A stretch of 64,000 nt of DNA from Bacteroidia bacterium (GTDB lineage: Bacteria > Bacteroidota > Bacteroidia > M30B66): the NCBI GenBank assembly GCA_018401705.1, contig JAGYKL010000007.1, positions 62,001-126,000 of the forward strand, in the 5' to 3' direction. The translations under genes and the position numbers were made by a program. Shown one piece after another: positions 7,015-60,468 of the stretch (position 1 is the stretch's first letter; the number at the start of each line of letters is the position of its first letter). The notes under the pieces are model-generated. The model saw only the letters and a list, made by a program, of their open reading frames with translations. It searched no databases and was not told where the DNA came from.

Positions 7015-7554
7015 TTGGAACCACATAAAGAATACATGATTCAGTTCGCTGGACTGAAAGATGGATTACACAGTTTTTCCTATGAAGTTGGGAATTCGTT
7101 CTTTGATTCTTTTGAGCAAAACCTTGTATTAGGAGGTGAAGTTCTGGTAAATCTTGATTTAGATAAGCAAAGTGATCATTTAGTTTTAGATTTCAGTTTC
7201 GAAGGAAATTTGAATGTTGACTGTGACCGTTGCGCTGTTTCTGCACCTTTTCCAATAAAAGGTAGTTCAAGATTAATTCTACAGCTTGAATCCGGGGAAT
7301 CTGACGATGCTGATATTGAATATCTTTCGTCGGATGCTTATGAATACAATATTGCTCATTATTTATATGAAACATTGGCATTATCGCTTCCGCTCCGTTT
7401 GGTTCCTTGTGAAGCAAGCGGCGATAAGTCAATATGCGACCAGGCTGTTATAGACAAACTGGAAGCAATGAGCGTAGCAGAACCTGAAGTTGAAGAAGAA
7501 ATTCCAACAGATCCTCGTTGGGATGCTCTTAAGAAACTATCAGGAGATAAATGA
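7015..7554 (+). CDS. DUF177 / YceD family protein (23S rRNA accumulation)
   Basis: 179 residues. The N-terminal pattern MIQFAGLKDGLHSFSYEV, the central NVDCDRC...FPIKG segment and the C-terminal DPRWDALKKL are typical of Bacteroidota DUF177 proteins. YceD homologues are needed for normal 23S rRNA levels and are nearly always encoded next to rpmF, as here (27 bases upstream). The start is taken as TTG at 7015: the next ATG (7036) would remove residues that homologues normally have before the IQFAGLK strand. The use of TTG may keep translation low. Confidence 0.88.
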   Translation: MEPHKEYMIQFAGLKDGLHSFSYEVGNSFFDSFEQNLVLGGEVLVNLDLDKQSDHLVLDFSFEGNLNVDCDRCAVSAPFPIKGSSRLILQLESGESDDADIEYLSSDAYEYNIAHYLYETLALSLPLRLVPCEASGDKSICDQAVIDKLEAMSVAEPEVEEEIPTDPRWDALKKLSGDK

Positions 7555-49376: not shown

Positions 49377-49386
49377 TTACATATGT
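49377..49386 (+). promoter_or_regulatory. Shared upstream word TTACA-NN-TGT, site of gene A1
   Basis: TTACATATGT ends 82 bases before the A1 start codon. The same word (TTACACATGT) ends 83 bases before A2 and 105 before A3. A possible -7 box with one mismatch (TATCGTTG, 49437-49444) follows. Candidate activator or repressor site; the protein that binds it is unknown. Confidence 0.5.
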
Positions 49387-49468
49387 CAGGAGATTTGAAT
49401 TTGACCAATCTATAAAGGCAACCGTGTAAACGTCTTTATCGTTGAGGAACCCAAAAAACATTTAGTCC

Positions 49469-49981
49469 ATGGAGAACCTCGACTCTGTAAAATCAATTTC
49501 TTCAGTAATCAAAAGAACAGCATTTATTGCTGGATTACTTTTTTGTGGAGCTGGTGCAAATGCACAAAGCAATGAAATCTCGTTTAAAGTAGCTCCTCCT
49601 GCTGAAGCCAAAGAATTAGTTAAAGATAGCGTAGACAATTTTCTATCATTTTCACCAGTATATGTCGAAGGTAAGACTTACCTGAGATGGTTGGTAGAAA
49701 ACGATAAAAAGGACGGTGTTTTTATTGTTGAAAGGTCAGAAGATGGCGATCAATATGAAGCATTAGGCTTTAAAGATCGTGTTGGCTCTGAAAAGAACGT
49801 AAACCTCTTTTATTCTTATGTCGATGATGCTCCTCCAGCAGGCTATGCTCATTATAGGATTATGCAGGTTGGTGTTGACCATACCTTCAACTATTCAGAT
49901 GCAGTTAGAGTAAAAACTAGTGCGGCTGCAAATTCAACAGGCAGCGCTTCTGTTCCTGTTACTGAAGAATCAGACAAGTAA
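49469..49981 (+). CDS. Small exported Fn3-like protein A1 (pair 1)
   Basis: 170 residues. Signal peptide about 1-33 (LLFCGAGANAQ). One domain at 60-150 with FSPVYVEGKTYLRWL, KDGVFIVERSEDGDQYEALG and YSYVDDAPPAGYAHYRIMQ, the pattern of a fibronectin type III-like sandwich as found inside many T9SS proteins, here standing alone. The tail (151-170) is Ser/Ala/Glu-rich. There is no T9SS signal, so it should stay in the periplasm or envelope. 21 bases before B1. The domain is about 60% identical by eye to A2 and A3. I do not know its function. Confidence 0.7.
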   Translation: MENLDSVKSISSVIKRTAFIAGLLFCGAGANAQSNEISFKVAPPAEAKELVKDSVDNFLSFSPVYVEGKTYLRWLVENDKKDGVFIVERSEDGDQYEALGFKDRVGSEKNVNLFYSYVDDAPPAGYAHYRIMQVGVDHTFNYSDAVRVKTSAAANSTGSASVPVTEESDK

Positions 49982-50002
49982 TTTACCTCTAATTCATTCT
50001 GA

Positions 50003-51772
50003 ATGAAACTACGTTTACGAAATCGTAACAGACTCAGCTATCGTTTAAAAAGAAGACTCCGTCATGTAGCAGTTATTTCTACTATGTCGGCACTTTTAGG
50101 AGGTATATTTTACTTGTATACTTTCATTGGACAAGTTAGCGAAATCAGAGCTTCCGAAAAAGAAGCCCAGAATAATCCAAAAACAGCTATTCTTGAAGGT
50201 TTTTCAGGAAGAAAGAAAATCAGTATCCATACTGATAAGCTTCCTAAAGAAGAAACTCTTTATCACTTCCCATTATTAGTCAGTTTAAGACTCGATGAAT
50301 TAATGAGTGTGCAACACGGAGGAATGGTTTCTGGTCGCGACGGAGAAGACATTGTTTTTACATCTCCTGACGGCGAGACAATTATACCTTATCAAATAGA
50401 GCGCTTTGAACCTGTTTCAGGAAAATTATTAGCATGGGTGAGACTTGACACTTTATCGTCTTCAAACAATGCAATTTATATGTATTATGGGAAGTCTGAT
50501 GCTGTATCGTTTGAAAGCAATAAAACTTTTGACAAGCCATATGAGTTGGTATGGCATCTTAACAGAGGCCTTCAGCCGGATGGTCCAGTTGCAGTTGCTG
50601 GTGAATATCGTTCCATTAAAGATGAAGAAGGCAGATTTGCTGCTGCAAAGGACTTCCTAGCTTATGGTGGCGCCCATGCAAAGTTTGAAAGTGCTACTGA
50701 CGTTAATTTTAGCGGCGACATAAGTGTTTCAACTTGGGTTAAAGCAACAAAAAGACCTTTTGATCAAGTAATTATAAGTAATTCAAGCCGTACCGGCGGA
50801 TTCAGTCTTTGGCTTGACCAAAATGGGAAACCTATTTTTGAAATTATATCAGAAAAGGGCGACGTTTCAAGCATAGACAAAGTTGAAGGAGGAACATCAC
50901 TATTAGGTGATACTTGGTATAAATTAACAGGTATATTCTCCAGCAAAGACAGCACAGTATCTCTTTATGTGAATGGAGTGCTTGACAGAGAAACTAAAAC
51001 CAAAATTAGCTATCACGCCGGAGGCGATATAACTTTAGGTTCTACCAGTGATGGTAAAAGAGGATTTTATAATGGAATAATAGATGAAGTCAGAATTTCT
51101 TCTATCGCTCAGAGTCCAAACTACATAAAGTCTGAATATCTATCAGAATCAGATCCAGAAAGCTTTTTCACAATTGACGGGCAGGAAGTCTTTAGCGCTT
51201 CACCAAAATTAGCTAGTATTAAGAACCTCGAATCAGAAGTTAGCAATGAGCACGTAATTATTAGGTGGCAATCTGCTAAAGAGAAGAATCTTGATTACTA
51301 CATTTTAGAGAGATCTGTTGCCGGAGATAACTTTGTTGAAGTGGCTAGAACGCTAGGTAAAGGAAACACAGATGAAGACCATAGTTATTTTATCATAGAC
51401 CCTGCTCCTGTTTATGGAACAGCCTATTATAGAGTTAGAAGTACTTCCTTTAAAGGAGAAAGTCAAGTAACAGATATTCAAACAATTCACGTTTCTGCTC
51501 CAGTTGCCATTCTAGGCATTAATAAAATAGAGCCAAATCCATTTAACGATAAATTCCAAGTGTCTTTCAAAGCTGGCACTGAAGGAGATATCGACCTGAA
51601 ACTTACTAGTATAAGTGGAAATATCGTGTACACAAAAAGCCTAAAACCTTCAGAACAATCTGAGAATTTATTTGAATTCAATTCTCCATCTAGCTTAAAG
51701 CCAGGCATTTATTTTCTAAGTATTCAGCAAGCTCAGGAAACAAAAACTGTGAAACTAATTAAGCAATTGTAA
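50003..51772 (+). CDS. DUF2341-LamG-Fn3 protein B1 with T9SS type A sorting domain
   Basis: 589 residues. A strongly basic 20-residue N-terminus precedes one hydrophobic segment (about 21-45) without a clear cleavage site. DUF2341 (about 66-165; FPLLVSLRLDELMS, DGEDIVFTSPDGE, LAWVRLD). LamG/concanavalin-like domain (about 180-385; ISVSTWVKATK, WYKLTGIFSS, GFYNGIIDEVRIS). Fn3-like domain (about 410-495; DYYILERSVAGDNFVE). T9SS type A end (about 510-589; KIEPNPFNDKFQVSF ... PGIYFLSI). Probably a surface carbohydrate- or matrix-binding protein; co-transcribed with A1. Confidence 0.8.
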   Translation: MKLRLRNRNRLSYRLKRRLRHVAVISTMSALLGGIFYLYTFIGQVSEIRASEKEAQNNPKTAILEGFSGRKKISIHTDKLPKEETLYHFPLLVSLRLDELMSVQHGGMVSGRDGEDIVFTSPDGETIIPYQIERFEPVSGKLLAWVRLDTLSSSNNAIYMYYGKSDAVSFESNKTFDKPYELVWHLNRGLQPDGPVAVAGEYRSIKDEEGRFAAAKDFLAYGGAHAKFESATDVNFSGDISVSTWVKATKRPFDQVIISNSSRTGGFSLWLDQNGKPIFEIISEKGDVSSIDKVEGGTSLLGDTWYKLTGIFSSKDSTVSLYVNGVLDRETKTKISYHAGGDITLGSTSDGKRGFYNGIIDEVRISSIAQSPNYIKSEYLSESDPESFFTIDGQEVFSASPKLASIKNLESEVSNEHVIIRWQSAKEKNLDYYILERSVAGDNFVEVARTLGKGNTDEDHSYFIIDPAPVYGTAYYRVRSTSFKGESQVTDIQTIHVSAPVAILGINKIEPNPFNDKFQVSFKAGTEGDIDLKLTSISGNIVYTKSLKPSEQSENLFEFNSPSSLKPGIYFLSIQQAQETKTVKLIKQL

Positions 51773-51903
51773 GCATTTGAATAAATAATTGAAAATAATC
51801 CCTAAATCTTACTCCCGAATAATAAATAAATCTAATTCAAAAAACCATCAAATACCTTAAGAAGCTATGACTTTAATAATTATACGCTAAAATTCAAATT
51901 GAT

Positions 51904-51938
51904 TTATTACACATGTAAATGATACATGTTTGTAATAA
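51904..51938 (+). promoter_or_regulatory. 35-base imperfect dyad with TTACACATGT, upstream of A2
   Basis: Left arm 51904-51916 pairs with right arm 51924-51938 (8 bp TTATTACA/TGTAATAA plus 5 bp CATGT/ACATG, two-base bulge, 7-base loop). It contains the shared word TTACACATGT (51907-51916), which ends 83 bases before the A2 ATG. Confidence 0.5.
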
Positions 51939-51960
51939 AATCTAAGCTGAACGAGGCCTA

Positions 51961-51968
51961 TACATTTG
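51961..51968 (+). promoter_or_regulatory. -7 box (TACATTTG) of A2-B2
   Basis: Exact TAnnTTTG match; transcription start near 51975. The dyad then lies roughly 40-70 bases upstream of the start, a usual activator position. Confidence 0.5.
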
Positions 51969-51999
51969 TCGTATTCAAGTTCACAAAACACAAACAACT

Positions 52000-52473
52000 A
52001 TGAAGCTCATTTACAAAATTTTAATGATAACAGCGGTAGTCGCTGTCTCATCTATAGATTCAAATGCACAAAAAGTATCACAATCAAGTTCTACGCTTTT
52101 AAACCGTGGCAATTTGACAGAAGACTCTTTGAACACTTTTATTTCATTTTCACCGGTAAATCTAGATGGTAAAACTTATGTAAGGTGGCTTGTTAAAAAT
52201 GATAAGAAAGACGGAGTTTTCATTGTAGAAAGATCAGATGATGGAAGTGAATTTGAAGCTCTTGGTTTTAGAGATCGTGTAGGCACTCAATTATTAGTAA
52301 ATCTTTTTTATTCATACGTTGACGAAGACCCATTACCTGGGGCAAGTCACTATAGAGTTATGCAAGTAGGTGCAGACAACACTTACAAATACAGTCCAGT
52401 TGTGAAAGTAGTTACTCCAATGAATCCTCGTCAGGCAGGATCTGCAGCTGATGCAGGAAACGAATCAAAATAA
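52000..52473 (+). CDS. Small exported Fn3-like protein A2 (pair 2)
   Basis: 157 residues. Signal peptide about 1-23 (SIDSNAQ). The Fn3-like core at 49-139 contains FSPVNLDGKTYVRWLV, DGVFIVERSDDGSEFEALGF and YSYVDEDPLPGASHYRVMQ, nearly the same as in A1 and A3. The tail is short and Ala/Gly/Ser-rich. No T9SS signal. 26 bases before B2. The three A cores are far more alike than the signal peptides and tails, so the core is the selected part. Function unknown. Confidence 0.7.
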   Translation: MKLIYKILMITAVVAVSSIDSNAQKVSQSSSTLLNRGNLTEDSLNTFISFSPVNLDGKTYVRWLVKNDKKDGVFIVERSDDGSEFEALGFRDRVGTQLLVNLFYSYVDEDPLPGASHYRVMQVGADNTYKYSPVVKVVTPMNPRQAGSAADAGNESK

Positions 52474-52499
52474 AAAGCACTCCACAAAAATAATTCACC

Positions 52500-54263
52500 A
52501 TGAAAAAGAGATCTACAAAACTTGTAACTAAAACCAAAACAAAGGTTGCAGTTCAAAACAGAATGCGCTTTGTGGCTGCTGCCGGAGCACTTGCATTAGG
52601 AGTATTTTCTGTTGCTTTACTTTACAATACTCTTGGTAATTCCAAAGAATCTATTGCCAACAACAAATGGAATGGAATGGAAACCCTTGCGGAGTTTAAA
52701 TTCCGAAAAAAAATAACAATTGATGCTTCACAAGTATCCCAAGGTGAAGCTTTAAAAGGCTTTCCAGTAATGGTAGTGCTAAAAGATGAAGATTTAAAAT
52801 CAGCTTCCCACGGTGGTAAAGTTTTAAGTGAGCAGGGAGCTGATATCAGATTTACAAAAGATGATGGTGTATCTCTTTTGGATTATGAGATTGAGACCTA
52901 TAATCCTGAAACAGGTGAATTGTTAGCATGGGTTAAAATGGAATCAATTAGCTCAGAAGATTCGAAATCAGTATTTCTTTATTTCAGCAATAAATTTGCT
53001 GCAAATGAAAGTTCTGCTGCAACATGGAACAAGACTTATAAAGCAGTATGGCATTTAAAGGGTGCTTTAAGCACCAAAATCCCACATGCAAATCAATTTG
53101 CAGATAATTCTGATTTTAAAGATGACAAAGAAGTTTATATTGCATCAGAGAAAAACGCAAGTCAATTTCCTTGCCTTAACACCCCTGAAGATGTTGATAT
53201 TACTGGAGATATAACTATTTCAGCCTGGGTATTATTAAGTGGTAAGAAAGAACAAACTATTATTTCCAACCAAAGTGGCTTTAATGGTGGTTATCGATTG
53301 GCTATCAATAAAGATAGAAGAATCGAATTTGAAATCAGAAATGAAAAATCTGAGCCTGCTGCTGTAGCTTCGAAAGAAGGAATACAATTAGAAAAAGACA
53401 CATGGTATTATGTAACTGCCATATACTCTGATGATGCCGACACGCTTGCAACCTACATAAATGGCGATTTTGATAAAGGTGTAAAAACTGATATCAGTTT
53501 GGCAGGAAGTACCGAAGCTCTTCAAATAGGCAGAGAACCATCCAAAAAGATTTATTATTTCGATGGTTTAATAGATGAAGTAAGAATTAGCAATATTGTT
53601 CATTCTCCAAATTGGATTAAAACAGAATATGCTAATCAGATTAACCCTAAAACCTTCATGCAAATTGGAGTTACAGAAGCTATTGTTCAGCAAATTTCTA
53701 TGAGCCTTCTAACTTTTGATGGGGAAGCTCAAGGAAATACAGTTGAATTAAAGTGGCTTACTGCAAATGAAGTAGACAACGATCTATTCTCCATTGAGCG
53801 TTCTGAAAACGGAATTGATTTCAAAGAAATTGGAACTAAACCAGGAGCCGGAAACAGTAATGAAGTACTTAGTTATAGATACCGTGATAATAGTCCGCTA
53901 ATTGGAACTAATTATTACAGAGTAAAACTAACAAGCAGTTACGGTAATGTAGAATATTCAATGATAACACCGGTTCAAGTAGAACCAGCAGGTGAAGCAG
54001 ATATCAAAATCTCTTCTCCTCAGCCTAATCCTTTCGTGAAAGACTTTCAGGTTGAATATACGCTGCCCAAAACAGGAACCGCACAATTGAAATTTATGAG
54101 TGTTACCGGAGATGTCGTACTTGAAGAACAAATTAATGGAGAAAAAGATGCTCCATTGAAATTCTATTATAAAGATGACAACGGACTTAAGCCTGGAGTT
54201 TACTTTTTAAGTGTGGCTCAAGAAGAAGACAAGAAAATGGTAAAACTTATAAAAAGACTTTAA
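52500..54263 (+). CDS. DUF2341-LamG-Fn3 protein B2 with T9SS type A sorting domain
   Basis: 587 residues, same layout as B1. Basic N-terminus (1-24), hydrophobic segment (about 25-44), then GNSKESIAN, shared with B3. DUF2341 about 67-165 (FPVMVVLKDEDLKSA, GADIRFTKDDG, LAWVKME). LamG about 180-385 (ITISAWVLLSG, WYYVTAIYSD, YYFDGLIDEVRIS). Fn3-like about 400-490 (DLFSIERSENGIDFKEIG). Type A sorting domain to the end (SSPQPNPFVKDFQVEY ... PGVYFLSV). A terminator hairpin follows at 54287. Surface binding role inferred from LamG and T9SS. Confidence 0.8.
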   Translation: MKKRSTKLVTKTKTKVAVQNRMRFVAAAGALALGVFSVALLYNTLGNSKESIANNKWNGMETLAEFKFRKKITIDASQVSQGEALKGFPVMVVLKDEDLKSASHGGKVLSEQGADIRFTKDDGVSLLDYEIETYNPETGELLAWVKMESISSEDSKSVFLYFSNKFAANESSAATWNKTYKAVWHLKGALSTKIPHANQFADNSDFKDDKEVYIASEKNASQFPCLNTPEDVDITGDITISAWVLLSGKKEQTIISNQSGFNGGYRLAINKDRRIEFEIRNEKSEPAAVASKEGIQLEKDTWYYVTAIYSDDADTLATYINGDFDKGVKTDISLAGSTEALQIGREPSKKIYYFDGLIDEVRISNIVHSPNWIKTEYANQINPKTFMQIGVTEAIVQQISMSLLTFDGEAQGNTVELKWLTANEVDNDLFSIERSENGIDFKEIGTKPGAGNSNEVLSYRYRDNSPLIGTNYYRVKLTSSYGNVEYSMITPVQVEPAGEADIKISSPQPNPFVKDFQVEYTLPKTGTAQLKFMSVTGDVVLEEQINGEKDAPLKFYYKDDNGLKPGVYFLSVAQEEDKKMVKLIKRL

Positions 54264-54286
54264 TCGAGTAACCTAACCTCGACTAG

Positions 54287-54316
54287 ACCCCGGATGATTC
54301 GTTGTTCGGGGTTTTT
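54287..54316 (+). terminator. Probable terminator after B2
   Basis: ACCCCG (54287-54292) pairs with CGGGGT (54307-54312), followed by a T5 run. The 14-base loop makes it weaker than others here. Confidence 0.6.
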
Positions 54317-54489
54317 CAATTTTTATAATAATAATGCCAAATAAATAATAAAATCGCCTTAAATAATTAAAACACTATTTCCTTACATAAATAATACAAT
54401 AATCTCAAAGAAAAGTATCGCATATAAACTTGATTATGTGATTCTTAAATCAAATTCAACCTGTAATTAATTAATAGATTAAATATTCC

Positions 54490-54499
54490 TTACACATGT
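54490..54499 (+). promoter_or_regulatory. Shared upstream word TTACACATGT, site of gene A3
   Basis: Identical 10-mer to the A2 site. It ends 105 bases before the A3 ATG, about two helical turns further than at A1 and A2. No exact -7 box was found between. Confidence 0.5.
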
Positions 54500-54604
54500 T
54501 CATTTTGCAGCACCTGTTCACTTTTTAGCGGCAACTGGCGCGATAGCTTTACGTAATATAAATCACGATGAAACACTCTTTACTTAACCTTTAAGATTAG
54601 AAGT

Positions 54605-55102
54605 ATGAAAACGCAGCGACTTAATCACAGATTTATTTCTGCATGCAAAAGTATACTTGTGTGTGCATTCGTAATCAGCGCATATGATATGGCTAGTGCA
54701 CAGAATGGAATTGGCTCAGGTTTAATTGGGTCTGCTCAATTAAAACAAGAAAAAGAAACTCCGATAGTATCTTTCTCTCCTGTCTATGCCGACGGTAAAA
54801 CCTTTGTTAGATGGCTTGTACAAAATGATGAGAAAGACGGTTTATTCATTGTAGAGAGATCAGCAGATGGCACCGACTATGAGGCTCTCGGATTTAAAGA
54901 TAGAGTTGGTTCTCCTCTTTGTGTTAACCTTTTCTACTCATTCATTGATGAAGAGCCATTAAATGGACAAACATATTATAGAATTATGTCGGTAGGAACC
55001 GATCAAACTTTCTCATACAGCGATGTAGTAAGGGTAAGAACAGATGTAACTGCTGCTACGCCTGCTACAAATAGCGCTTCAAATACCGAAGAAAAAGAAT
55101 AA
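54605..55102 (+). CDS. Small exported Fn3-like protein A3 (pair 3)
   Basis: 165 residues. Signal peptide about 1-33 (SAYDMASAQ). Fn3-like core 56-147 with FSPVYADGKTFVRWLV, DGLFIVERSADGTDYEALGF and YSFIDEEPLNGQTYYRIM. Thr/Ala/Asn/Glu-rich tail. No T9SS signal. Unlike the other two pairs, a strong terminator hairpin stands between this gene and B3, which should give much more A3 than B3 mRNA. Function unknown. Confidence 0.7.
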   Translation: MKTQRLNHRFISACKSILVCAFVISAYDMASAQNGIGSGLIGSAQLKQEKETPIVSFSPVYADGKTFVRWLVQNDEKDGLFIVERSADGTDYEALGFKDRVGSPLCVNLFYSFIDEEPLNGQTYYRIMSVGTDQTFSYSDVVRVRTDVTAATPATNSASNTEEKE

Positions 55103-55111
55103 ATAAATCTT

Positions 55112-55155
55112 AAAACCGACTGATAATCGCTGCTTATCAGTCGGTTTTAGTTTTT
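55112..55155 (+). terminator. Strong terminator/attenuator between A3 and B3
   Basis: Perfect 15-bp stem (55112-55126 with 55134-55148, core ACCGACTGATAA) and 7-base loop, then AGTTTTT. B3 starts 14 bases downstream of this run, so B3 is expressed by read-through or from its own start. Confidence 0.88.
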
Positions 55156-55168
55156 GTAGAAATCGCCT

Positions 55169-56551
55169 ATGAAACCAAAATTACAATTAACACCCAAGAA
55201 TAAAGTTAAGGTTCGCGCTTCAGTAAGATTAGCTTACGTAGGTGCGACTTTTGCAGTTCTGGTAGCCACGGCATTCTTAATCTACTATAATTTAGGGGAC
55301 TCAGAAAAATCGATAGCTAATGAGCAAACTTACTTAAATGGCTTTAGTAAAAGAGCACCTCTTTTCATTTCAAATGATATTATTAGAGGCCAGGAACTCT
55401 TAAAAGATTTCCCTGTATTAATAAATATTAAAAATGATGAATTAAAACATGTCTCAAAAGGAGGTTTCGTTGTAAATCCAAAAGGTTTAGATATAAGAAT
55501 TACAAAAGCCGATGGCATAAGTTCCCTGGCTTCTCAAATTGAATCCTATAATCCTAATAGCGGAGAGGTTTCATTATGGGTAATGATAGACTCTTTATCT
55601 GAAAAATATGGTAGAGACTTGTTCCTCTATTACAGTAACTCAACGATAAACTCAGATCTCCCGGCTGTAATTTGGTCAAATGGCTATCAAGCTATTTGGC
55701 ATCTCAATGGCAATGCATTTGTCGCAAACACTAGAAAAATAAAAACTACCGCTCAAGGAACATCAGATACTGAAGGAAAAATATCGATGAGTAAAAAATT
55801 CTCAGCAGATAGAAAAGACTATTTAAGTTGTGGTTATGTTAAAGAACTTGACTTGCAAGGAAGCTTTACAATTTCAACATGGTTATACCTTAATGAATTG
55901 AACAAAAAACAAGTAATTCTCTCTAATCAAGGCGACTTACCTCAAGGATACTCGATGTACATCAATGAAAACAATCAACTTTGCGCTGATTTCTATAACG
56001 CATCAGGCAAGTTGATTCAATTTAGTGATGAATCAGATTCGGAAATTCTTGATAAAGACAGGTGGTACCATGTTAACATTGTATTCTCTTCAGAAGAAAA
56101 AAAACTAACATCATACGTAGATGGAATTGCTGATAGGTTTGCAACGGTAATTGATGTTCCTCATCCCAGCGCAGCTGAGTTACAAATTGGAAGAAACCAA
56201 TTTGATAAAGATTCATATTTTAATGGACTACTTGATGAAATAAGAATTGCAAATGTTCCACGCTCTCAGCTATGGTTAGCAACAGTCTTTTACAATGAGT
56301 CTTTGGCAGACAAGCTTTTCAGTTTAGGCGCTTCAGAAGATTTAAACCTAAGTGCCGAAGCACAGAAAGCAAGCAAAAAAGCAATAATGAGTTTGGAAGA
56401 TGAAAATCTAAAGAACAATTCTAAGAACAATACGCTCAATAAAACAAAGTCGAGTGGTAGCGCTCAAGTCCCAGGCGTTCTAAGCAATAATGCCGAAGTA
56501 TTACAAGCTAGACTAAACAATATCAAAAGGGTAGCTGACGAAAATAATTAA
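55169..56551 (+). CDS. DUF2341-LamG protein B3, no T9SS sorting domain
   Basis: 460 residues. Basic N-terminus (1-20), hydrophobic segment (about 21-41), then LGDSEKSIAN as in B2. DUF2341 about 60-158 (FPVLINIKNDELKHV, KGLDIRITKADG, SLWVMID). LamG about 172-375 (FTISTWLYLNELN, WYHVNIVFSS, SYFNGLLDEIRIA). Where B1 and B2 continue with an Fn3-like and a T9SS domain, B3 has an 80-residue polar, Asn/Lys/Ser-rich tail. So B3 probably stays anchored in the inner membrane with its domains in the periplasm (inference). Not an obvious frameshift: the tail is in one clean open frame. Confidence 0.75.
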   Translation: MKPKLQLTPKNKVKVRASVRLAYVGATFAVLVATAFLIYYNLGDSEKSIANEQTYLNGFSKRAPLFISNDIIRGQELLKDFPVLINIKNDELKHVSKGGFVVNPKGLDIRITKADGISSLASQIESYNPNSGEVSLWVMIDSLSEKYGRDLFLYYSNSTINSDLPAVIWSNGYQAIWHLNGNAFVANTRKIKTTAQGTSDTEGKISMSKKFSADRKDYLSCGYVKELDLQGSFTISTWLYLNELNKKQVILSNQGDLPQGYSMYINENNQLCADFYNASGKLIQFSDESDSEILDKDRWYHVNIVFSSEEKKLTSYVDGIADRFATVIDVPHPSAAELQIGRNQFDKDSYFNGLLDEIRIANVPRSQLWLATVFYNESLADKLFSLGASEDLNLSAEAQKASKKAIMSLEDENLKNNSKNNTLNKTKSSGSAQVPGVLSNNAEVLQARLNNIKRVADENN

Positions 56552-56613: not shown

Positions 56614-57948
56614 ATGAGCCCGGAGGATATTTTCATTGAGGTCGTAATGGTTTCAGCATTTGAAGCTATTTTATTTTTCCAGTTTGCCTATGTGATATCA
56701 CAATGGATATTCATTCGCCGCCCTGAATACCTTTGGTATGCCGCATATATTCTAGGCATGTTAACCTATACCTTGGTTATCTATGAGTACTTACCTTCTG
56801 TGCACCTGAGCGAAGAGCTTACCTTCACTCCAAGAGTTCACTTTGATAAAGTATTACCTTTTATCTGTTACTATTTCTATTATCGGTTTGCTCGGGCATT
56901 TCTAGATATGAAAACTGAACTCCCCAACCTTAATAGATATATTAAATACCTTGAATATTTTCTTTTGAGTTACTGTGCGGTGGATCTATTATGGAAGTTT
57001 CTTGGCCAAAATCCAATTGATGGAGAATTCATATTTCATATTAGCTCAACAATTTTATTTATCTGTTCTCTAATTTTAATAATTATATTTCTTAAGAAGA
57101 AAATAAAACTTTCCTTTTTCTTGGTTTTCGGAGCAATAGTAATAGCTATAGGAAGTTTTGGCACAATGATACTGATGATGAGAGAGCAAGCTGGCTTCTC
57201 TACTTTCATGCCTCCTTTTCTTTTAAATAATATTGCTGTTGTGATTGAACTTTTGGCTTTCACTACTGGACTTGCTTACAAAGCACGTCTTGAAGAGATT
57301 GAAAAAGTAAAATTTCAAAAATCTTTAATTGTTGAGTTAGAAAATAACATCAAACTAAACAATCAAATACAAAATATCAGAAAAAGCATTGCTTTGGAAA
57401 TCCATTCAGAAATTGGTGAAAACGTTAGTGACATCAGCATCTATTCGGCTCTAGCTTCAAAAAGCCAAATCAACAATCCCGAAGAAACAAGAGACTATTT
57501 ATTAAAAATTCGACAAACCTCCTTGGAAGTGGTTGCTAATATGCAAGATTTCATTTGGACTCTTTTTCCTGAAAACGCAAGCTTAAACAATCTAATCCTA
57601 AAACTTGAACAAATTCAGAATGAAATACTTCGACCAAATAAGGTGGATTTTGAAATCATTCTTAACGAAACAATTAAAAGCAAGGAATTTATCCTTCCAT
57701 TGGATTTCAACCGCCTAAACATTGGCTTATTCAGGAAAATTTGCATCCATGGAGTTAGATTCAATATCAACTTAATTCAAGTTGTGATTTCAGAAGATTT
57801 TGTATTGTATAAAATTCCCTTTAATGAAAATGAATCAGATTCAATTAGCGATGTGCTCTCTAAATTCAAGCATAGGTTTGAAGCAATCAAGAATATCCAA
57901 AATGGCAATGTCGAAATTCGAATAAGCATACCTAAATTTAGCTATTGA
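56614..57948 (+). CDS. 7TM sensor histidine kinase relative, probable pseudokinase
   Basis: 444 residues. Seven hydrophobic helices in 1-225, as in 7TM sensor kinases, then a coiled coil (225-255) and a HisKA_3-like dimerisation domain: IALEIHSEIGENVSDISIYSALASK with H264, and a later DFIWTLFPENASLNNLILKLEQ. The acidic residue after the histidine is replaced by serine. The following ATP-binding part (about 345-444) lacks the N-box asparagine (normally KEAxNNxxKH) and the DNG lid; IPFNENESD stands there instead. It may therefore signal without phosphorylating. It begins 62 bases after B3 and lies 32 bases before the response regulator gene. Confidence 0.8.
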   Translation: MSPEDIFIEVVMVSAFEAILFFQFAYVISQWIFIRRPEYLWYAAYILGMLTYTLVIYEYLPSVHLSEELTFTPRVHFDKVLPFICYYFYYRFARAFLDMKTELPNLNRYIKYLEYFLLSYCAVDLLWKFLGQNPIDGEFIFHISSTILFICSLILIIIFLKKKIKLSFFLVFGAIVIAIGSFGTMILMMREQAGFSTFMPPFLLNNIAVVIELLAFTTGLAYKARLEEIEKVKFQKSLIVELENNIKLNNQIQNIRKSIALEIHSEIGENVSDISIYSALASKSQINNPEETRDYLLKIRQTSLEVVANMQDFIWTLFPENASLNNLILKLEQIQNEILRPNKVDFEIILNETIKSKEFILPLDFNRLNIGLFRKICIHGVRFNINLIQVVISEDFVLYKIPFNENESDSISDVLSKFKHRFEAIKNIQNGNVEIRISIPKFSY

Positions 57949-57980
57949 AATTCTTTCTCAATAGTGTGTACTTTGACCTT

Positions 57981-58613
57981 ATGACTCATGTAATTATTTA
58001 TGATGATAATGCCACGCGAAGAGAAAGTCTTAAGATTCTTCTTGAGTCGGCCGAAGGCTATATCGTATGCGGGATGTTTGGAAATTGTGTGCATGTGGAG
58101 CAGCACATGAAAGAGTTTGAACCTGATATAGTTCTGATGGATATTCAAATGCCTGAATGCGATGGCATTGAAGGCGTTAAGAAAATTAGTGAGTTTTTTC
58201 CTAATACTAAAGTTATCATGCAAACAGTCTTTGAGGATGATGATAAAATCTTTGATGCAATTAAATTTGGAGCATCTGGATATATTCTCAAAAAGGCTGA
58301 GCCCCATAAGATCATAGAGGCTATTGAAGAAGTGCTTCAAGGTGGATCGGCAATGACTCCAAGCATAGCGACTAAAGTCTTAGGTTTCTTTCGATCACAA
58401 TCTGATCATAATCAGAATAAATTTGGTCTCTCTGATAGGGAGAAAGAAATCCTAAACGAGCTAGTCGATGGGAAAAGCTATAAAATGGTAGCAGAAAAAC
58501 TCTCAATCAGCTATCACACTGTTAATTCGCACATAAAAAAAATCTATGATAAACTTCAAGTGCACTCAGTAGGTGAAGCTATAAGCAAGGCGATTCATCA
58601 AAAGATAGTATGA
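57981..58613 (+). CDS. LuxR/NarL-type response regulator
   Basis: 210 residues from ATG 57981 (MTHVIIYDDN); a TTG at 57945 overlaps the upstream stop and is less likely. REC domain with D54 in IVLMDIQMP and the lysine in GYILKKAEP. C-terminal helix-turn-helix (about 145-205) with LSDREKEILNELVDGKSYK and HTVNSHIKKIYDKL. It probably binds DNA and may control the A/B pairs upstream (context only). Its stop overlaps the ATG of the TPR lipoprotein gene (ATGA). Confidence 0.93.
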   Translation: MTHVIIYDDNATRRESLKILLESAEGYIVCGMFGNCVHVEQHMKEFEPDIVLMDIQMPECDGIEGVKKISEFFPNTKVIMQTVFEDDDKIFDAIKFGASGYILKKAEPHKIIEAIEEVLQGGSAMTPSIATKVLGFFRSQSDHNQNKFGLSDREKEILNELVDGKSYKMVAEKLSISYHTVNSHIKKIYDKLQVHSVGEAISKAIHQKIV

Positions 58614-59353
58614 AATCACTTCTTCTAAGTTTATTTGTTCTGTGTTTCGCATGTATCTCATGCGATAGAGTAAAACTTCTAACAAACGACAAAGAAAACA
58701 GCCTTAATCTATTAACTGTCAAGAAATCACTCGACGAAGCAGCATATTTAATGGATGAAGCGAGAATGGCTGAGGCTCAAAGCATTCTCATCGAAACACT
58801 TCAAAATGAAAGTATCGAATTATCAAAAGCCGATAAATACTACTTAAATTCTTTCCTTGCCGAGATAATGTACTATTCGGCACATTTTGATCAAGGAATG
58901 AATTATTCAAGAAGGGCAAAAGCACTTGCCATTGAAATGAATAATGAGCCTATGCAGGGAAGCTCTGACAATTTCCTTGGTCTATTTTATCTAAACAAGA
59001 ATTTTCTTGACAGTGCTATTGTCAATTTCAAAAATGCCCTTGAGCTTATTGGCGAAAATGACACGACGCTTTGGTTAAGCAGAAGATACCATGTATACAA
59101 CAATCTAGGTGAGGCCTATTTAAAACTTAAACTTCCTGATTCTGTAAAGTACTACACCAATAAGGCGATTGAAATTTGCGAAAGAGATAGTATCCCAAGA
59201 GCCTATGCTCTTGGGATGTGGAACCTATCTGAACTCTCAATAATTGAAGGATATTTCAGCAAGGCTTTATCATATTCAAATAATGGATTGAAAGCAATTG
59301 GAAATGAGGAAAGCTTAAATGATGTAAGGCTTTTTTGCTTGGTTCTAAAATGA
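58610..59353 (+). CDS. TPR lipoprotein, N-terminal half of a split sensor kinase
   Basis: 247 residues. Lipobox ACISC gives acylation at C18. Then tetratricopeptide-like helices (about 40-235), with YYLNSFLAEIMYYSAHFDQG and DNFLGLFYLNKNFLDSAI as clear repeats. In this phylum such TPR domains normally continue into a membrane helix and kinase core in one chain. Here the frame ends at a TGA (59351-59353) that overlaps an ATG (59350) in the -1 frame, from which the kinase continues. An extra T in the T6 run at 59331-59336 would restore a single 620-residue protein. Either a frameshift, a sequencing error or a true split. Confidence 0.75.
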   Translation: MKSLLLSLFVLCFACISCDRVKLLTNDKENSLNLLTVKKSLDEAAYLMDEARMAEAQSILIETLQNESIELSKADKYYLNSFLAEIMYYSAHFDQGMNYSRRAKALAIEMNNEPMQGSSDNFLGLFYLNKNFLDSAIVNFKNALELIGENDTTLWLSRRYHVYNNLGEAYLKLKLPDSVKYYTNKAIEICERDSIPRAYALGMWNLSELSIIEGYFSKALSYSNNGLKAIGNEESLNDVRLFCLVLK

Positions 59354-60468
59354 AAGCATTTGCAATTGAAGAAGACAAGGGAAAGATTTTATCTGTTCTC
59401 GAAGAGTCGAAAAAATATTTGAAAACCGAGCATACAAGCATATACTCAAAATCTGAATTTATAAAGGCCGCTATTCAATCTCTAATCTCGACCGATCAGC
59501 TTTCTATTGCTTCTCCACTTCAAACTGAATTAAGAAATCTAGAAGAGCAACTTAAGAATGAAGAAGATATTTCAAGAATCAAAATTCTAAATAACTACTA
59601 TCAAAATGAACAAAAACTTCTTTTAATTAGGGAAGAAAAAGAGAAACAAGAACTAACGCTATTTCTAACAAATTCATTAAACATAGCTCTAGCAGCACTC
59701 TTTATTGTTTGTTTAGCATTGGTTTTCTTCATTAGATTTAATTCAAATCAAAAGGAAAAAATTCAACTTCTAGCATTTGAAGCTGAAAAGGAAGAGTTAA
59801 AAAGAATTCAAGAGTTTAAAGCTATGAAATCTAATTTTGAATCTTTACAAAATGAACGAAACAGAATTGCTAAAGAACTACACGATGATATTGGAAGTAG
59901 CTTAAGTAGCATTAGCATTTTTACAAGTTTAGCCATTGAAGCTTTACCTGAAAGAATAGAAAAAGCTGAGAACTTAATGCAAAGGGTAAAAAGCCAAGCG
60001 TCAAATATTGCTGATAATCTTTCAGATTTAATCTGGGCAGTATATTCTAAAAACGATACTTATGGCCATCTCATAATTCGAATGAAAAATTTCTGTTACG
60101 AAATTCTAAATGAAAAAAACATTGAAACAGAGTTTAACTTCGATCCTGAAATCCAAGATTTGCTTGCCGATCTAAAAATTAGAAAAAACCTAATTCAGTT
60201 TTTTAAAGAGGCTGTAAATAATATTTTAAAATATAGCAAAGCAAGCCACATTGAAATCTCACTAATAGAAAATGAAGGATATTTGAAATTATTAATCATT
60301 GACAACGGGATTGGATTTGACGACCAAACAGTGATTGAAGGCAACGGTTTTACTTCATTCAGAGCAAGAGCCAAAGCAATGAATGGAAAAATGCAAATTA
60401 CCAGTCAACCTGGTAATGGAACCCAGGTTTGGGTAGAATTTGAACTAACTAAGCAAATGACAGATTAA
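59350..60468 (+). CDS. Histidine kinase, C-terminal half of the split TPR sensor
   Basis: 372 residues from ATG 59350. Residues 1-75 continue the TPR-like helices, a coiled coil follows (about 60-105), one membrane segment (about 108-128) and a HisKA_3 core: RIAKELHDDIGSSLSSISIF with H178. ATP-binding domain with N-box FKEAVNNILKYS, DNGIGFD and GNGFTSFRARAKAMNG. All catalytic motifs are intact, unlike in the kinase relative at 56614. Alone it has no signal for exporting its N-terminal half, which argues that it belongs to the upstream lipoprotein. Coupled by an ATGA overlap. Confidence 0.85.
   Translation: MKAFAIEEDKGKILSVLEESKKYLKTEHTSIYSKSEFIKAAIQSLISTDQLSIASPLQTELRNLEEQLKNEEDISRIKILNNYYQNEQKLLLIREEKEKQELTLFLTNSLNIALAALFIVCLALVFFIRFNSNQKEKIQLLAFEAEKEELKRIQEFKAMKSNFESLQNERNRIAKELHDDIGSSLSSISIFTSLAIEALPERIEKAENLMQRVKSQASNIADNLSDLIWAVYSKNDTYGHLIIRMKNFCYEILNEKNIETEFNFDPEIQDLLADLKIRKNLIQFFKEAVNNILKYSKASHIEISLIENEGYLKLLIIDNGIGFDDQTVIEGNGFTSFRARAKAMNGKMQITSQPGNGTQVWVEFELTKQMTD

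What the first reader, a model, noticed from the sequence alone, without database searches (positions are those of the whole stretch)
49469..56551. Three tandem paralogous pairs of a lone Fn3-like exported protein (A) and a DUF2341-LamG protein (B)
Each unit is a small exported protein with one Fn3-like domain and a large DUF2341-LamG protein, repeated three times in the same order and strand. The A cores share almost every strand (for example GKT-x-x-RWLV, FIVERS-x-DG, YEALGF, YYRIM-type ends), while signal peptides and tails differ. B1 and B2 carry T9SS signals, the A proteins do not, so each pair would place one partner in the periplasm and the other at the surface. I know of no described system with this composition; function is unknown. 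This is my main candidate for a new system.
Basis: partly seen in the sequence, partly recalled or inferred. Interest (0 to 1): 0.78.

Follow-up and report, generated by a model that had tools for sequence, protein, structure and literature searches.

The report
Paired small and large surface proteins
This stretch of a Bacteroidota genome holds three tandem copies of a two-gene unit, a small exported one-domain protein followed by a large surface-type protein; [quoted passage not shown]

Summary
A1-B1-A2-B2-A3-B3 is a six-gene array. Order and position-specific orthology are kept across the 9 other sampled genomes of the GTDB family, even where flanking genes differ; one draft lacks A1. Corrections: B1 and B2 also contain a domain homologous to A before their type IX (T9SS) sorting domain. 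B3 lacks both. The kinase and regulator genes downstream are not part of the unit.

A is a single Fn3 fold (AlphaFold core pLDDT >90) and belongs to a stand-alone family separate from embedded Fn3 domains (branch support 99/98). Outside this family A pairs not with B but with other large exported proteins: PKD giants or T9SS cargo in four families, at 15 of 20 loci. A genes, not B genes, carry a palindromic site, TTACA-NN-TGTAA. Best explanation: A is a co-transcribed exported partner of the adjacent surface protein. Binding is inferred; a fused fold gave no confident interface.

The trail led to something stranger. PKD giants beside A end mid-Fn3 and lack a sorting domain. A separate exported protein carries the other half-Fn3 plus a type B sorting domain. 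Such orphan proteins occur in about ten families, and one locus encodes orphan, A and giant consecutively.

The parts
49377..49388 (+). operator-like palindrome TTACATATGTCA (9/10) upstream of A1; a second palindrome TTACATGTAA lies further upstream
49469..49981 (+). A1: exported stand-alone Fn3 protein, 170 aa, signal-peptide-like N-terminus ending GANA|Q
   Evidence: cleavage site read by eye
50003..51772 (+). B1: long basic signal-peptide-like N-terminus, DUF2341 (aa 113-175), LamG (223-375), A-like Fn3 (about 393-505), type A T9SS sorting domain (511-588)
51907..51918 (+). operator TTACACATGTAA (10/10) upstream of A2
52000..52473 (+). A2: exported stand-alone Fn3 protein, 157 aa
52500..54263 (+). 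B2: as B1, DUF2341 (113-174), LamG (230-373), A-like Fn3 (about 399-507), type A T9SS sorting domain (509-586)
54490..54501 (+). degenerate operator TTACACATGTTC (8/10) upstream of A3
54605..55102 (+). A3: exported stand-alone Fn3 protein, 165 aa
55110..55150 (+). strong hairpin, terminator-like, between A3 and B3; an analogous hairpin of unrelated sequence is at this junction in 7 of 8 genomes
55169..56551 (+). B3: DUF2341 (106-161) and LamG (217-367), no Fn3 and no T9SS sorting domain; conserved C-terminal stretch

Best explanation
Each A-B pair is one transcription unit. A is a small Sec-exported protein of a single Fn3 domain that works as a dedicated partner (escort, assembly factor or stoichiometric subunit) of the large exported protein encoded beside it. 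For pairs 1 and 2 the large protein (DUF2341-LamG-Fn3-sorting domain) is taken to the cell surface by the type IX system, with A meeting it in the periplasm, perhaps through B's own A-like Fn3 domain. Pair 3 has diverged: B3 has no Fn3 or sorting domain, and a hairpin between A3 and B3 may make A3 in excess. Shown: gene order and its conservation, the family identity of A, its fold (predicted), the T9SS domains of B1/B2, and the shared site upstream of A but not B. Inferred: signal-peptide cleavage, co-transcription, A-B binding, periplasmic site of action, regulation by one factor, excess of A3, and the lectin/adhesin role of B.
For: Order A1-B1-A2-B2-A3-B3 conserved in the family although flanking genes differ in G003, G005 and G009. 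A1, A2, A3 and B1, B2, B3 each group by position across genomes; A1 is weak (66/27) in the outgroup-rooted tree but starred in the other tree. A1-B1 spacing 3-36 nt; A2-B2 from -29 (overlap, by the called start) to 41 nt. TTACA-NN-TGTAA at 9/10 or better upstream of 22/27 family A genes, 0/29 B genes, 9/20 A-like genes outside, against 9/263 control genes (Fisher p 2e-7 for the outside set; relatedness not corrected). Stand-alone A family separates from embedded Fn3 domains 99/98. Outside this family 15 of 20 stand-alone A loci lie beside a PKD giant or T9SS-sorted protein, two further loci also do, and in f5 orphan sorting domain, A and giant are consecutive on one strand.
Against: No direct evidence of binding: the A1-B1 read-through fold gave pTM 0.47 and no interface can be read from it. 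G009 retains B1 without A1, so A1 is not strictly needed, or A2/A3 stand in. A is more conserved than its B (mean distance 0.22-0.27 against 0.32-0.56), which does not look like tight one-to-one co-evolution; partial distance correlations favour matched pairs for 1 and 2 only weakly (0.36, 0.40) and not for 3 (-0.26), with 7 genomes. T9SS-sorted proteins are very common here (at least 150 type A matches per genome in most), so neighbourhood alone is weaker evidence than it looks. Five of the 20 outside A loci have no obvious partner next door.
Confidence: 0.5

Rival explanations
1. Co-regulation without contact: A is an independent exported protein, and A and B sit together only because both belong to one envelope or surface-remodelling regulon driven by the TTACA-NN-TGTAA site.
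For: The same site precedes other exported surface protein genes in this genome and most orphan-sorting-domain genes elsewhere. B1 survives without A1 in G009, with a site-like sequence upstream. A pairs with several unrelated large proteins outside the family.
Against: Regulon membership does not need strict A-then-B order kept in triplicate with short gaps in pairs 1 and 2, or consecutive orphan-A-giant genes in f5.
Confidence: 0.27
2. Co-secreted subunit: A rides out with B1/B2 and is a structural part of a surface fibre or coat made of Fn3, LamG and DUF2341 domains.
For: A is homologous to a domain inside B1/B2, so homotypic Fn3 packing is plausible; the A3-B3 hairpin suggests A3 may be made in excess, as a repeating subunit would be.
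Against: A has no sorting domain; B3 has none either; no co-secreted cargo without its own sorting domain was mentioned in the one T9SS effector review searched for it (PMC10202324).
Confidence: 0.15
3. A and B are ordinary lineage-specific duplicated surface proteins; A is only a stray Fn3 domain cut off a T9SS protein, kept by drift.
For: Embedded relatives of A are widespread in large exported proteins of the class.
Against: Stand-alone A proteins form one group against embedded domains (99/98), have invariant motifs in 27 sequences, occur in several families, and keep the upstream site. Drift does not keep this.
Confidence: 0.04

Closest known systems
SprB-SprF and other type B T9SS cargo with PorP/SprF-like shuttle proteins (PMC12618676, PMC9143113)
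   Same: Large T9SS cargo genetically linked to a dedicated helper gene.
   Different: SprF/PorP are outer-membrane 14-strand barrels for type B signals (PMC9143113). A is one soluble Fn3 domain of about 130 mature residues, and B1/B2 carry type A signals.
Chaperone-usher pilus loci (from own knowledge)
   Same: A small periplasmic Ig-fold protein encoded beside the surface protein it may escort; in the PKD giants next to A the cargo ends in an incomplete Ig-like fold.
   Different: PapD/FimC chaperones have two Ig domains and an usher barrel; A has one Fn3 domain and no usher gene was seen nearby. No donor-strand exchange is shown here.
Fn3 domains next to the sorting domain of T9SS proteins
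   Same: Homologous domain; A resembles the Fn3 in front of the sorting domain of B1/B2 and other large proteins.
   Different: A is a separate polypeptide with its own signal peptide, no sorting domain, and a distinct branch of the tree.
DUF2341-LamG surface proteins (Pfam PF10102, PF13385)
   Same: B1-B3 pass both family cut-offs.
   Different: Each is preceded by an A gene in this family; a search of the open library for DUF2341 with LamG or T9SS returned no paper on such a pair.

Membership tests
T9SS cargo, type A (Por_Secre_tail) | C-terminal type A sorting domain above curated cut-off (B1, B2) | tested here: met
   B1 38.4 bits Pfam (cut-off 27) and 43.0 TIGR04183 (cut-off 23); B2 passes TIGR04183 (25.9) but is below Pfam (24.1)
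T9SS cargo, type A (Por_Secre_tail) | the same, for B3 and for A1-A3 | tested here: not met
   no match at E 0.5
T9SS cargo, type A (Por_Secre_tail) | actual surface exposure, sorting-domain cleavage | not testable with these tools
   needs cells
DUF2341 family | PF10102 above gathering score | tested here: met
   B1 41.7, B2 38.2, B3 30.5 bits, cut-off 23.4
LamG / concanavalin-like | PF13385 above gathering score | tested here: met
   80-84 bits, cut-off 27.6
Fibronectin type III fold (A) | Fn3 beta sandwich | tested here: met
   AlphaFold model, core pLDDT >90; VIA Z 10.6, rmsd 1.8, 84 residues to the N-terminal domain (residues 20-106) of PelI 3b8y; Z 9.9, rmsd 2.6, 96 residues to Ihog FN1 2ic2
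Fibronectin type III fold (A) | sequence match to an existing curated Fn3 family | tested here: not met
   no Pfam or NCBIfam Fn3 match at E 0.5 for A1-A3
PorP/SprF-like shuttle | outer-membrane beta barrel | tested here: not met
   A is a single small sandwich, 133 mature residues modelled
Chaperone-usher chaperone | two Ig domains and a linked usher | tested here: not met
   one domain; no usher recognised among the genes listed around the array
Stand-alone A family (defined here) | separate exported Fn3 protein, grouping apart from embedded Fn3 domains | tested here: met

The most novel reading that the evidence does not exclude
A proteins are the third part of a split-cargo secretion module. 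A giant PKD surface protein ends in the first half of an Fn3 domain and has no sorting domain; a separate exported protein starts with the second half of that Fn3 and carries a complete type B sorting domain; the halves join in the periplasm so that the T9SS signal is given in trans; A, itself an Fn3 protein, helps this joint to form or holds the unpaired half. In this family A has been copied and recruited to the DUF2341-LamG proteins. Gene halves and co-occurrence are shown; joining, trans-secretion and the role of A are not.
Probability: 0.3. Interest if true: 0.88.

Novelty: new variant of a known kind. Interest (0 to 1): 0.62.

Why it matters
If A is a real partner, T9SS surface proteins have a class of dedicated small soluble helpers that has gone unnamed because it is a lone domain without a curated family. 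Tracing A also exposed a giant surface protein whose secretion signal sits on another polypeptide across about ten families; if the halves join, it would break the rule, as stated in PMC12618676, that T9SS substrates carry their own C-terminal signal, and it can be tested directly with two-plasmid reporters.

Tried and rejected
Two-component genes downstream (56614-60468) as part of the unit: none of the neighbourhoods of the other genomes shows them beside the array, rejected. A-B as a recent local duplication: rejected by position-specific orthology. A as truncated T9SS domain: rejected by the tree. A-B co-fold by reading A1-B1 through the two in-frame stops in silico (7 of 9 genomes have A1 and B1 in frame, by coordinates; close relatives, not claimed as a signal): domains fold but pTM 0.47, no interface readable; inconclusive. 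The Foldseek list for the A1-B1 model (sialidases, clostridial neurotoxin binding domains) reflects a common jelly-roll at 9-16% identity and rmsd mostly above 20; no functional relation is claimed. Mirror distances: too few genomes. First B tree with outgroup: two of the three outgroup rows were read in the wrong frame, so that tree's B3 result is void; it was rebuilt without outgroup. Profile search of solved structures with A found only antibody chance hits. Phylum-wide sample for the orphan protein found only this genome; it drew other families and scored few candidates per genome, so it is uninformative; the class sample replaced it. No paper on this composition or on a trans sorting domain was found in the open library; subscription papers and preprints were not searched.
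Full report
What is there. The window holds A1 (49469-49981), B1 (50003-51772), A2 (52000-52473), B2 (52500-54263), A3 (54605-55102) and B3 (55169-56551), all on the + strand. B1-B3 pass the Pfam cut-offs for DUF2341 and Laminin_G_3; B1 and B2 end in a type A T9SS sorting domain (B2 by TIGR04183, just below the Pfam cut-off); B3 and the A proteins have none. A matches no curated family except one chance-level hit of A2 (LPD3, E 0.21). In the whole genome the next best matches to A after the three A genes are such embedded domains of large proteins and B2 itself.

Conservation. All 9 other sampled genomes of the GTDB family carry A genes. In the complete loci the order A1-B1-A2-B2-A3-B3 is kept, with each gene most similar to its positional counterpart, although the flanking genes differ in G003, G005 and G009. 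Several genomes are drafts: G001 shows only pair 1, G002 and G009 are split over contigs, and G009 has B1 without A1, with a tRNA-like stretch and a site-like sequence upstream of B1 instead. Trees group A1, A2, A3 and B1, B2, B3 by position; support for A1 is starred in one tree (100/95) and weak in the other (66/27). So the triplication is older than the family. The named records of this family are unclassified MAGs, two of them from pond samples by their isolate names, two filed under 'Chitinophaga pinensis'.

The A family. A search of 295 class genomes with the A profile found many embedded copies in large proteins, and stand-alone short-frame members in families coded f7, f15, f22, f23, f24 and f61; two more were found later in f5 and f23. 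Sixty-four domains gave a tree in which stand-alone and embedded domains separate with 99/98 (91 columns, some long branches). The predicted structure of mature A2 is a seven-to-eight-strand Fn3 sandwich (VIA Z 10.6 to 3b8y, Z 9.9 to 2ic2).

Partners outside this family. In f22 and f61 (8 loci) A lies directly upstream of a giant PKD-repeat protein; in f23 directly downstream of one (2 loci); in f15 beside T9SS-sorted proteins (5 loci); five loci have no such neighbour (PKD and sorting domains checked on examples). Because at least 150 type A matches per genome are seen in most of these genomes, chance neighbours are not rare; I did not measure the exact background, and related genomes are not independent.

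Control site. The palindrome TTACA-NN-TGTAA lies upstream of A: at least 9 of 10 positions in 22/27 family A genes, 0/29 B genes, 9/20 A-like genes outside, against 9/263 other genes of the same loci. Several of the nine control hits are themselves genes sharing the intergenic region with A or an orphan-protein gene. Genome-wide in G000 the exact form (TTACANMTGTAA) has 11 distinct sites, several upstream of exported surface proteins. It is read here as an operator; no regulator is identified. Between A3 and B3 a strong hairpin is present in 7 of 8 genomes with unrelated sequences; only some are followed by T runs, so it may be a terminator, an mRNA-stabilising element or both.

Mechanism. I commit to A as a dedicated exported partner of the neighbouring large protein (0.5). 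Steps shown: order, conservation, family, predicted fold, sorting domains, site upstream of A only. Steps inferred: signal-peptide cleavage, co-transcription, binding, place of action. The one structural test possible here, folding A1-B1 as a single in-silico read-through of the DNA, gave good domains but pTM 0.47 and no interface. A1-B1 and A2-B2 distances correlate slightly more than swapped pairs after correction, A3-B3 does not (7 genomes, weak).

Where the trail led. The G000 locus on contig 3 has the site (L149:12566), then a 169-aa exported protein that begins with the second half of an Fn3 domain and ends in a complete CHU_C type B sorting domain, then a PKD giant that ends with the first half of an Fn3 (the giant has apparent frameshifts in this assembly). 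Giants in f1, f7, f22, f23 and f61 end at the same place without a sorting domain, and those of f33 and f13 do too, with the f13 end less clean. A class scan with the orphan proteins gave 31 top hits, all in short frames of 140-209 codons and starting near the signal peptide, followed by hits in frames mostly over 800 codons that start further in. They cover f1 (all 10 genomes), f22, f23, f61, f7, f13, f5, f33, f56 and f58. In f1, f23, f7, f33 and f13 the orphan lies beside the giant; in f22 and f61 it is elsewhere and A sits beside the giant; in f5 orphan, A and giant follow each other on one strand. A and the orphan co-occur in 5 of 7 A families (hypergeometric p 4e-4 with an assumed 70 families; 22 genomes share both; the genome-level p ignores relatedness; f5, found later, is not counted). 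The orphan genes also carry the site in most cases. PMC12618676 states that T9SS substrates carry a conserved C-terminal signal; a signal on a separate polypeptide was not found in the open library. Joining of the halves and secretion in trans are inferences from sequence.

Novelty. Components of the A-B array are known domains; the stand-alone A family and its pairing are not described in what could be searched. I rate it a new variant of a known kind (T9SS surface-protein loci with a dedicated helper). The split-cargo reading would be categorically new if shown.

Noticed in passing
L149:6200-12566 (own genome contig 3); L182, L183, L184, L136, L139, L194, L195, L225, L223: Split T9SS protein: a PKD giant ends mid-Fn3 without a sorting domain, and a separate exported 140-209-codon frame carries the other half-Fn3 plus a complete type B (CHU_C) sorting domain; about ten GTDB families.
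   Followed up: yes
L223:8040-14905: Orphan sorting-domain protein, A-like Fn3 protein and PKD giant consecutive on one strand in an f5 genome (giant in two frames in this assembly).
   Followed up: partly
window 49377, 51907, 54490; L149:12566; L077:4652 and 7432; L081:3861; L140:7460; L142:7789; L144:7468: Palindrome TTACA-NN-TGTAA upstream of A, orphan and other exported surface-protein genes across families; regulator unknown.
   Followed up: partly
window 55110-55150: Hairpin between A3 and B3, conserved as a structure but not in sequence in 7 of 8 genomes.
   Followed up: yes
B1-B3 N-termini (window 50003, 52500, 55169); L077:10153; A-like in L064, L130: Unusually long n-region before the hydrophobic stretch of the signal-peptide-like N-terminus (strongly basic in B, with a conserved Ala after the hydrophobic stretch); reminiscent of extended signal peptides.
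   Followed up: partly
L140:5786-7294, L132:9961-11400, L063:7734-9182, L149:4657-6123: About 480-residue protein without a Pfam family above cut-off, repeatedly near A or the split giant, with a receiver-only response regulator (DDxxIDNFIN) close by.
   Followed up: no
L077:4725-6213: Fragmented frames after a copy of the site, next to an intact relative gene at 7466; looks like a decayed duplicate.
   Followed up: no
window 56614-60468: 7TMR-DISM sensor with only a weak HisKA_3 match, LuxR-type regulator and TPR plus histidine kinase genes directly after B3; not beside the array in other genomes.
   Followed up: partly
A1-B1 junction, 7 of 9 genomes: A1 and B1 are in the same reading frame in 7 of 9 genomes; close relatives, possibly chance.
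   Followed up: no
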